Assembly (NCBI GenBank): GCA_002725285.1
Contig: PBRC01000045.1
Coordinates: 1 to 54,527 of the forward strand
DNA: 54,527 nt
Origin: Gammaproteobacteria bacterium
GTDB taxonomy: Bacteria; Pseudomonadota; Gammaproteobacteria; Pseudomonadales; Azotimanducaceae
Direction: 5' to 3'
Shown: in pieces, positions 41,860 to 43,958 of the stretch
How the letters are laid out: each line of letters opens with the position of its first letter
Numbering within the stretch: the first letter of the stretch is position 1
Notes under the pieces: model-generated
The model's input: only the letters and a program-made list of their open reading frames with translations
What the model was told of the DNA's origin: nothing
Database searches by the model: none
Made by a program: the position numbers and the translations under genes

Positions 41860-42954
41860 ATGGCAAAGCGACGCGAGTTCAGCATTTTCAGTCTTTCTTT
41901 TCTGGATGTCATGGCCTGCGGATTTGGCGCTGTCATCCTCATTTTTATCGTTATTCAGCACAGTACGGAAACCGTATCACAGGAAATTAACCTAGAGTTG
42001 CTTGCCGAAATAAAGGAACTCGAAGTCGAGGTTCTTGAAGAAACCGAAAACCTCGTTGAACTTAAGACAACTCTCAAAGAAACCGATGACGAGATCGTAA
42101 CAACCGAAGATCTTATTCTCCTAATACTGAATGAAATCAAAGTGTTACAGGCTTTAATTAAAGAGTTTCAAGACTCTGGATCCAGCCATGCGGCTGCTAT
42201 TGATGCCCTCAAAACTGAATTGAAACAACTCAACGAAGAAGCCGCTTCACTCAAAGGGTCAGTTGCAGCAGCCGAACAAAGTGGTGTAGACAGCAGATCC
42301 TTCATTGGTCTCGGTGACCGACAGTATCTAACGGGTCTGCATCTCGGCGGCGAGCACATACTTATCCTGTTGGATACCTCGGCCAGTATGTTGGACGATA
42401 CCATCGTCAATATCATCCGCCGTCGAAATATGGAGGATGATGACATCCGAGCCTCGAAGAAGTGGCAACGGGCAATTAGAACAATCGATTGGATCGTTGC
42501 AAATCTACCTGTCGAAGCCAACATGCAACTCTTCACTTTTAATACCGAAGCTAAACCACTCATTCCCGGAACAGAAACAAGTTGGATTCGAGCCGCTGAT
42601 CGTGAAGATATTGACCAGGCACTGAGCAATCTGCAGGAGATTATCCCGAAAGGTGGCACCTCACTTCATCATCCTTTTGCTCTTGCGAGACAAATGAAAC
42701 CCGTACCAGACAGCATATTTCTTATCGTCGACAGTCTGCCAACGATGGGTTTTACACCAGGCAACCAGACCAGCATTTCAGGTAGTGAACGTGTCGGCCT
42801 ATTCGGCAGCGCTATGGATGAATTGCCCCTTGATACGCCTGTGAATGTGATTCTGTTCCCTATGGAAGGTGATCCGATCGCCGCACCGAGTTTCTGGCGC
42901 CTGGCTCAAATAACTGGCGGCTCTTTCTTGAGCCCGTCAAAGGACTGGCCATAA
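41860..42954 (+). CDS. Membrane-anchored vWA protein with ExbD-like TM (1)
   Basis: N-terminal FSLSFLDVMACGFGAVILIFIVI; coiled coil; MIDAS motif ILILLDTSASM. Confidence 0.82.
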   Translation: MAKRREFSIFSLSFLDVMACGFGAVILIFIVIQHSTETVSQEINLELLAEIKELEVEVLEETENLVELKTTLKETDDEIVTTEDLILLILNEIKVLQALIKEFQDSGSSHAAAIDALKTELKQLNEEAASLKGSVAAAEQSGVDSRSFIGLGDRQYLTGLHLGGEHILILLDTSASMLDDTIVNIIRRRNMEDDDIRASKKWQRAIRTIDWIVANLPVEANMQLFTFNTEAKPLIPGTETSWIRAADREDIDQALSNLQEIIPKGGTSLHHPFALARQMKPVPDSIFLIVDSLPTMGFTPGNQTSISGSERVGLFGSAMDELPLDTPVNVILFPMEGDPIAAPSFWRLAQITGGSFLSPSKDWP

Positions 42955-43958
42955 TGAAGCCTAAACGTCGGGAAATTGAAGGTGTAAGCCTGTCTTTTCT
43001 TGACGTCATCAGCTGTGGTTTTGGCGCGATCATTCTTATGCTGGTACTGACAAAAGTATTTGAGCCGGTCGTGCTGGAGGATACCATCGAGAATCTGGAA
43101 GGTTATCTGGCCGCTCTTCAGGAAGATGTTTTTAAGCTCCGGGGAGAAACACGGGACATCGATCGGGAAATGATTCGCAAGCAAGACAAGAAGAAAGACG
43201 AGATCGAACGCCTGATCCGTTTACAGCAGAACCTTGATGCCCTCAAGAACAAGCTAACGACAGTAACCGACAGAACAAAGGTCAACACCACCATTGAAGA
43301 GAAACTGGCCAAGGCAAAACAGTCACTGACCGAAGAAATGCAACGACTTCTGGCGGATTACAAAAAAAGCATCGACGATGACACCATTGGCGGCGTTCCG
43401 GTTGACAGTGAATATGTCGTCTTCATCATTGATACATCAGGCAGTATGCGACAATTTGCCTGGCCGCTGCTGCAACAGAAAATCGAGGAGACTCTCTCGG
43501 TTTATCCAAGGCTGAAAGGCATTCAGGTGATGAATGATATGGGCAATTTCATGTTTTCAGAACGCCGGGACTTCATGAACGACAACACCAAGCTGAGACA
43601 ATTAATAGTTGAGCGCCTTGAGACCTGGGATACCTTCAGTAATTCAAGCCCGGTCGAGGGCATCACACGGGCAATTTCAGCATTCTATAAACCAGGCAGG
43701 AAAATCAGCCTTTATGTGCTGGGAGATGAGTTTACCGGCAGATCAATTCAAACAGTCATCGATAAGGTTGATCGCATCAATCATGCCGGAGCTGACGGTG
43801 AAAGACTGGTGCGTATCCATGCCATTGGATTTCCTGTTCAGTTTGCACAACCTCAGCAATTTCAGGTAACCGGTATCAAATTCGCCATTCTGATGAGGGA
43901 GCTTTGCGCCCGTAACGGCGGAACCTTCGTTGCTCTTAACGACTATCGTTTGCTCTGA
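42954..43958 (+). CDS. Membrane-anchored vWA protein with ExbD-like TM (2)
   Basis: N-terminal GVSLSFLDVISCGFGAIILMLVL; coiled coil; MIDAS motif VVFIIDTSGSM; start overlaps previous stop (TAATG). Confidence 0.82.
   Translation: MKPKRREIEGVSLSFLDVISCGFGAIILMLVLTKVFEPVVLEDTIENLEGYLAALQEDVFKLRGETRDIDREMIRKQDKKKDEIERLIRLQQNLDALKNKLTTVTDRTKVNTTIEEKLAKAKQSLTEEMQRLLADYKKSIDDDTIGGVPVDSEYVVFIIDTSGSMRQFAWPLLQQKIEETLSVYPRLKGIQVMNDMGNFMFSERRDFMNDNTKLRQLIVERLETWDTFSNSSPVEGITRAISAFYKPGRKISLYVLGDEFTGRSIQTVIDKVDRINHAGADGERLVRIHAIGFPVQFAQPQQFQVTGIKFAILMRELCARNGGTFVALNDYRLL

What the first reader, a model, noticed from the sequence alone, without database searches (positions are those of the whole stretch)
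41860..43958. Two different vWA proteins share an ExbD/TolR-like TM motif: possible asymmetric 5:1:1 stator
The N-termini FSLSFLDVMACGFGAVILIFIVI and GVSLSFLDVISCGFGAIILMLVL align with ExbD (TPFIDVMLVLLIIFMV), including the Asp that carries protons in ExbD/TolR. After the TM each has a coiled coil and a vWA domain with an intact MIDAS (DTSAS, DTSGS) where ExbD/MotB carry a peptidoglycan- or partner-binding domain. Because the two are paralogous but distinct and adjacent, a heterodimeric axle is possible.
Basis: partly seen in the sequence, partly recalled or inferred. Interest (0 to 1): 0.82.

Follow-up and report, generated by a model that had tools for sequence, protein, structure and literature searches.

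The report
Paired vWA axles of ExbB-like motor
Two different adhesion-type (vWA) proteins, always encoded side by side with a TolQ/ExbB-like membrane channel, very probably form the axle of a proton-driven motor that spans the bacterial envelope; the idea was already published as a prediction in 2025, but the conserved set of partner proteins around it has not, to my knowledge, been described.

Summary
vWA1 (41860-42954) and vWA2 (42954-43958) each have one N-terminal membrane helix with an Asp, a long coiled coil and a vWA head with conserved MIDAS. The Asp is invariant (57/57 and 56/56 orthologues, plus 7/7 in another class). The partner, an ExbB/TolQ-like protein (39755-40549), keeps the two channel threonines (equivalent to TolQ T145 and T178) in 55/55. 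The genes overlap by one base. I found no orthologue with only one of the pair except where a contig ends. The paralogues are reciprocally monophyletic. No ExbD/TolR/MotB gene lies in the cluster, so the pair most likely supplies the axle. The helix has no significant profile match to ExbD, only a borderline one (vWA1) to MotB; the claim rests on context. Hetero- versus homodimer is untested. Novelty is limited: Mol Biol Evol 2025 (PMC12204202) already describes vWA proteins with a TolR/ExbD-like helix and Asp, in heterologous pairs next to tolQ without tolR, with AlphaFold3 models in the pentamer. New here: the pair belongs to a conserved seven-gene core (two lipoproteins, TPR-PEGA, PEGA-SUMF1, ExbB, vWA1, vWA2) with accessories (Hsp70-like/FHA protein, secreted TPR-TonB_C proteins, M48 peptidase, more lipoproteins).

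The parts
41860..42954 (+). vWA1: N-terminal membrane helix (residues 14-32) with Asp16, coiled coil, vWA head with MIDAS DTSAS 172-176
42954..43958 (+). vWA2: membrane helix (15-34) with Asp17, helix 48-136, vWA head with MIDAS DTSGS 160-164; start overlaps the vWA1 stop (TAATG)
41905..41907 (+). codon of vWA1 Asp16, candidate proton-carrying residue
   Evidence: invariant 57/57, also in loci of a second class
43002..43004 (+). codon of vWA2 Asp17, candidate proton-carrying residue
   Evidence: invariant 56/56, also in loci of a second class
39755..40549 (+). MotA/TolQ/ExbB-family protein with an extra N-terminal membrane helix; channel Thr189 and Thr222
   Evidence: PF01618 60.6 bits; T189/T222 55/55, aligned to TolQ T145/T178; helices by hydropathy
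40563..41858 (+). Hsp70-like nucleotide-binding fold (phosphate loops degenerate) plus C-terminal FHA-like domain; lineage-restricted accessory
   Evidence: found in 51 of 65 loci
39467..39745 (+). small secreted protein (92 aa), accessory
37416..39461 (+). membrane-anchored protein with four PEGA domains and a SUMF1/FGE-fold domain without the catalytic Cys pair; core
   Evidence: PEGA 166 bits, FGE 137 bits; single Cys502
35143..37407 (+). degenerate Ser/Thr kinase domain, membrane helix 283-301, TPR and conserved PEGA-like C-terminal part; TPR part is core, kinase domain only in some relatives
33882..35072 (+). lipoprotein (lipobox ISGC), no known family; core (ORF list starts it at 33756)
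32366..33865 (+). lipoprotein (lipobox LVAC) with long low-complexity linker; core
31341..31973 (-). lipoprotein (lipobox LTAC), accessory; downstream of vWA2 in relatives, inverted here
30688..31344 (-). lipoprotein (lipobox LTSC), accessory
29273..30682 (+). secreted TPR protein with TonB C-terminal-like domain, accessory
27909..29255 (+). second secreted TPR protein with TonB C-terminal-like domain, accessory
26198..27664 (-). secreted M48 metallopeptidase, accessory
   Evidence: PF01435 125.7 bits; 22 of 65 loci

Best explanation
The ExbB-like protein forms a pentameric proton channel in the inner membrane, as TolQ, ExbB and MotA do. The N-terminal helices of vWA1 and vWA2, one each, sit in its lumen, and their two Asp residues carry protons past the Thr ring; this turns the axle. 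Each helix continues into a coiled-coil rod (about 13 nm in vWA2, from the 89-residue helix of the model) that ends in a metal-binding vWA head. The two different heads grip different envelope partners: probably the PEGA/SUMF1 and TPR-PEGA inner-membrane proteins and the lipoproteins, in many lineages also the TPR-TonB_C proteins. Force is thus delivered to the outer envelope without a separate ExbD/TolR or TonB/TolA. Shown here: gene order, obligate pairing, residue conservation, domain folds. Inferred: pentamer, helix placement, rotation, heterodimer, partners. Unknown: the load and the phenotype.
For: Asp invariant in both paralogues. ExbB-like Thr189/Thr222 invariant and aligned to TolQ T145/T178. 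No ExbD on this contig and no MotB hit in the genome. Every genome with one vWA gene has the other: 30/30 in the order, 37/37 among relatives, all full-length cases in the phylum search incl. a second class; apparent singles in the class search resolved. Second copies in three genomes are also pairs. One-base overlap. Reciprocal monophyly and mirrored trees, r 0.92 vWA1/vWA2 and 0.90 vWA1/ExbB. Coil lengths co-vary, r 0.83. Seven-gene core complete in 47/48 loci with enough upstream sequence, same order in 46. In G372 the dedicated ExbB is kept although it has moved elsewhere in the genome. Published AlphaFold3 models of the family (PMC12204202).
Against: No significant profile match of the helix to ExbD and only a borderline one to MotB for vWA1. 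No complex model or experiment here. Mirrored trees and co-varying coil lengths are partly due to shared ancestry, and some lineages shorten vWA1 alone (L102, L107, L110, L111). Pairing does not tell a heterodimer from two homodimers.
Confidence: 0.6

Rival explanations
1. Two homodimeric motors: (vWA1)2 and (vWA2)2 each occupy an ExbB-like pentamer, giving two interchangeable motors with different heads, as has been considered for AglQ/AglS with AglR.
For: The same gene arrangement would result. For AglRQ/S it is not known whether hetero- or homodimers form (PMC9389320). ExbD, TolR and MotB form homodimers (established knowledge).
Against: Never one without the other; overlapping stop-start; no lineage seen to have lost either one.
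Confidence: 0.22
2. The vWA proteins bind at the side of the motor like TonB/TolA, and the true axle is an ExbD/TolR encoded elsewhere (three ExbD genes exist in the genome).
For: Three ExbD genes on other contigs. A separate vWA transducer family of this side-binding type exists (PMC12204202). Helix not significantly ExbD-like.
Against: An invariant Asp in the membrane helix has no evident role at the side site. PMC12204202 reports that this vWA family lacks the SHLS motif. The ExbB-like protein co-varies with the vWA pair.
Confidence: 0.1
3. A gated proton channel or sensor rather than a motor: vWA heads detect an envelope signal (or phage) and open the channel, as proposed for Zorya ZorAB.
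For: Weak ZorA profile match of the ExbB-like protein (E 4.5e-4); degenerate kinase and FHA-like domains suggest signalling.
Against: No effector nuclease or helicase among the cluster genes; no plasmid or phage copies; present in nearly all members of the host family, unlike mobile defence islands.
Confidence: 0.08

Closest known systems
TPH-vWA proteins next to tolQ (Mol Biol Evol 2025, PMC12204202, Fig. 4c-d; Idiomarina family)
   Same: vWA proteins with a TolR/ExbD-like pore helix and conserved Asp, in heterologous pairs, next to a tolQ-like gene without tolR/exbD
   Different: I could not compare sequences with the Idiomarina proteins. The passage read does not mention the seven-gene core, Hsp70-FHA, PEGA-SUMF1 or TPR-TonB_C genes.
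AglR-AglQ-AglS of Myxococcus xanthus (A-motility)
   Same: one MotA/TolQ-like protein with two different axle subunits, each with a membrane Asp (PMC9389320)
   Different: AglQ/S carry TolR-like peptidoglycan-binding domains, not vWA heads
TolQR, ExbBD, MotAB (5:2 motors)
   Same: PF01618 protein with the two channel Thr; single-helix partners with an Asp after a short N-terminus
   Different: homodimeric axles with small periplasmic domains; no significant sequence match of the vWA helices to ExbD
GldK with GldLM (type 9 secretion and gliding)
   Same: a SUMF1-fold protein genetically linked to a two-part motor
   Different: the PEGA-SUMF1 protein is far below the GldK cut-off (99.8 of 350 bits) and is PEGA-rich and membrane-anchored

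Membership tests
TPH-vWA/tolQ family (PMC12204202) | vWA protein with N-terminal pore helix carrying a conserved Asp | tested here: met
   D16 57/57, D17 56/56; vWA fold
TPH-vWA/tolQ family (PMC12204202) | heterologous pairs beside tolQ, no tolR/exbD | tested here: met
TPH-vWA/tolQ family (PMC12204202) | sequence orthology to the Idiomarina proteins | not tested
   the one scan of named genomes was already used; family named by description only
TPH-vWA/tolQ family (PMC12204202) | helices inside the pentamer in a complex model | not testable with these tools
   only monomers can be folded here; published for the family
ExbD/TolR (PF02472) | match to the Pfam ExbD profile | tested here: not met
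   no PF02472 hit to vWA1/vWA2; hhalign 1.8%
ExbD/TolR (PF02472) | periplasmic ExbD/TolR-type domain | tested here: not met
   coiled coil and vWA head instead
MotA/TolQ/ExbB (PF01618) | profile match and channel Thr pair | tested here: met
   60.6 bits against cut-off 22.9; T189/T222 55/55
Zorya defence (ZorAB) | ZorA/ZorB with associated effector genes | tested here: not met
   only a weak ZorA profile match, no ZorB match, no effector among the cluster genes

The most novel reading that the evidence does not exclude
An obligately heterodimeric (5:1:1) rotary motor with two different metal-binding vWA heads. It is the engine of a so far unnamed trans-envelope machine, vertically inherited in marine Gammaproteobacteria and at least one more class, with PEGA/SUMF1, TPR-PEGA, lipoprotein, Hsp70-FHA and secreted TPR-TonB_C parts.
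Probability: 0.45. Interest if true: 0.75.

Novelty: new member of a known kind. Interest (0 to 1): 0.5.

Why it matters
Known 5:2 motors have a symmetric homodimeric axle. A motor with two non-identical axle subunits, each with its own head, would let the two proton sites be mutated separately and would show whether an asymmetric axle can rotate. The wide and conserved gene cluster, present also in cultured genera (Arenicella, Halioglobus, Marinibactrum, Aestuariicella), points to an envelope machine of unknown function that can be tested genetically.

Tried and rejected
ExbD homology by profile: not significant. Lone vWA genes: G372 and G237 looked single in the class search; G372 has both, and G237's contig ends at vWA1. 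Defence island: rejected by vertical distribution, by the lack of plasmid and phage copies and of effectors. Active kinase: the window's domain lacks the catalytic HRD Asp (HGHLHP) and most relatives lack the domain. Active formylglycine-generating enzyme: only one Cys in the protein. GldK membership: far below cut-off. Coil-length co-variation as proof of a heterodimer: kept only as suggestive because of shared ancestry and exceptions. Asp conservation seemed at first untestable in the second class because my ORF caller missed a CTG start; resolved by reading upstream.

Full report
WHAT IS THERE. The two ORFs are at the stated coordinates: vWA1 41860-42954 and vWA2 42954-43958, overlapping by one base, TAATG. 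Each has a short basic N-terminus, one hydrophobic helix that opens with FLDV, a long coiled coil and a vWA head. vWA1 passes Pfam VWA_2. vWA2 does not, but its AlphaFold2 model matches solved vWA domains. MIDAS residues D, S, S and D are invariant in both families; the motif-2 position is Thr in 47/57 vWA1 and Ser in 56/56 vWA2.

IS THE HELIX EXBD-LIKE? The Asp is invariant in 57 vWA1 and 56 vWA2 orthologues and in seven loci of a second class, where the neighbouring Cys is mostly not kept. The second, by complex modelling, could not be run. Sequence statistics do not show homology to ExbD: hhalign 1.8% for each, in the range of five control segments (0.2-3.1%). For vWA1 against MotB it is 35.5%, against 8.1% for MotB versus ExbD. 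In column shuffles 1 of 60 reaches the vWA1/MotB score, and 6 to 8 of 60 reach the other three. The helix is too short for a firm verdict; the argument rests on the invariant Asp and on context.

CONTEXT. The neighbour at 39755-40549 is a MotA/TolQ/ExbB protein with an extra N-terminal helix by hydropathy. Its Thr189 and Thr222 are invariant (55/55) and align with TolQ Thr145 and Thr178. No ExbD gene lies on this contig; three lie elsewhere. No MotB hit was found in the genome.

PAIRING. In the order sample, 30 of 148 genomes have vWA1 and all 30 have vWA2 directly downstream. Among close relatives 37 of 37 carriers have both; three carry a second, divergent pair. In the phylum sample, 12 genomes of one family in another class also have the pair. 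Two genomes that looked like singletons in the class sample were read: G372 has both, and G237's contig ends there. The two paralogues are reciprocally monophyletic (57 and 56 sequences). Pairwise distances correlate at 0.92 between vWA1 and vWA2 and at 0.90 between vWA1 and the ExbB-like protein. Distances from Asp to MIDAS correlate at 0.83, but shared ancestry contributes and some lineages shorten vWA1 alone.

THE LARGER CLUSTER. In 65 loci the pair sits in one conserved cluster. Of 48 loci with at least 9.5 kb upstream, 47 hold all seven core genes: lipoprotein O499, lipoprotein Lip438, TPR-PEGA protein, PEGA-SUMF1 protein, ExbB-like, vWA1, vWA2. 46 have the same order. In L119 the ExbB-like gene lies after vWA2. 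In G372 it lies on another contig but is still present, while Lip438 was not found. Lineage-restricted additions are the 40563-41858 protein, the small secreted protein, two lipoproteins, an M48 peptidase, and secreted TPR proteins whose C-terminus matches TonB_C (10 of 15 members in Pfam; profile E 3e-10 to solved TonB2). The 40563-41858 protein has an Hsp70-like fold plus an FHA-like domain (profile and model agree); its phosphate loops look degenerate, so ATP hydrolysis is doubtful. The window's kinase domain lacks the HRD Asp and most orthologues lack the domain. The SUMF1-fold domain lacks the Cys pair. These look like structural or binding modules rather than enzymes (inference). Lipobox assignments are from reading the sequences.

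MECHANISM. Most likely a PMF-driven motor whose axle is made by the two vWA proteins. Shown: conservation, folds, gene linkage. Inferred: pentamer, lumen placement, rotation, heterodimer, partners. From the vWA2 model, an 89-residue helix would reach about 13 nm from the membrane. Two different heads suggest two different grips. The load is unknown; the lipoproteins, TonB_C domains and M48 peptidase point to the outer membrane.

WHAT IS KNOWN. PMC12204202 (2025) describes vWA proteins with a TolR/ExbD-like pore helix and conserved Asp, tightly linked to tolQ without tolR/exbD, predominantly in heterologous pairs, with AlphaFold3 models that place the Asp pair within the Thr ring. The locus fits that description; orthology to the Idiomarina proteins was not tested. 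The central claim of the finding is therefore a published, experimentally unverified prediction. Whether AglQ and AglS form hetero- or homodimers is also open (PMC9389320). I found no paper on the wider cluster, in a library that lacks most subscription journals.

VERDICT. Observation confirmed, with the caveat on ExbD statistics; interpretation partly supported; a new member of a kind predicted in 2025, with a newly seen conserved cluster around it. Interest 0.5.

Noticed in passing
L207-L210, L212-L214, about 40 bases upstream of the vWA1 ORF start found by the scanner: In seven loci of a second class the vWA1 frame has no ATG/GTG/TTG before FLD; a CTG codon at a constant place looks like a conserved non-canonical start.
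   Followed up: partly
window 27909-30682: Two adjacent secreted TPR proteins with a TonB C-terminal-like domain; relatives have one just upstream of the motor cluster. A TonB-type domain on a secreted TPR protein linked to a motor is unusual.
   Followed up: partly
window 40563-41858: Hsp70-like fold without usual phosphate loops fused to an FHA-like domain; no Pfam or NCBIfam assignment.
   Followed up: yes
window 26198-31973: Genes that lie downstream of vWA2 in relatives (two lipoproteins, M48 peptidase) are inverted and upstream here.
   Followed up: partly
L016: A contig titled Klebsiella pneumoniae MAG carries this cluster and gives the same gene scores as contig C295 of G827, which belongs to the window's own family; the title looks wrong.
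   Followed up: partly
P0169, P0181, P0337: vWA2 homologues are named Holliday junction resolvase-like endonuclease or Skp-family chaperone by their sources, probably because of the coiled coil.
   Followed up: no
G108:C60, G825:C169, G831:C110: Three genomes carry a second, divergent copy of the vWA pair; the one in G108 sits in a reduced cluster with ExbB-like, PEGA-SUMF1 and Lip438 (L113).
   Followed up: partly
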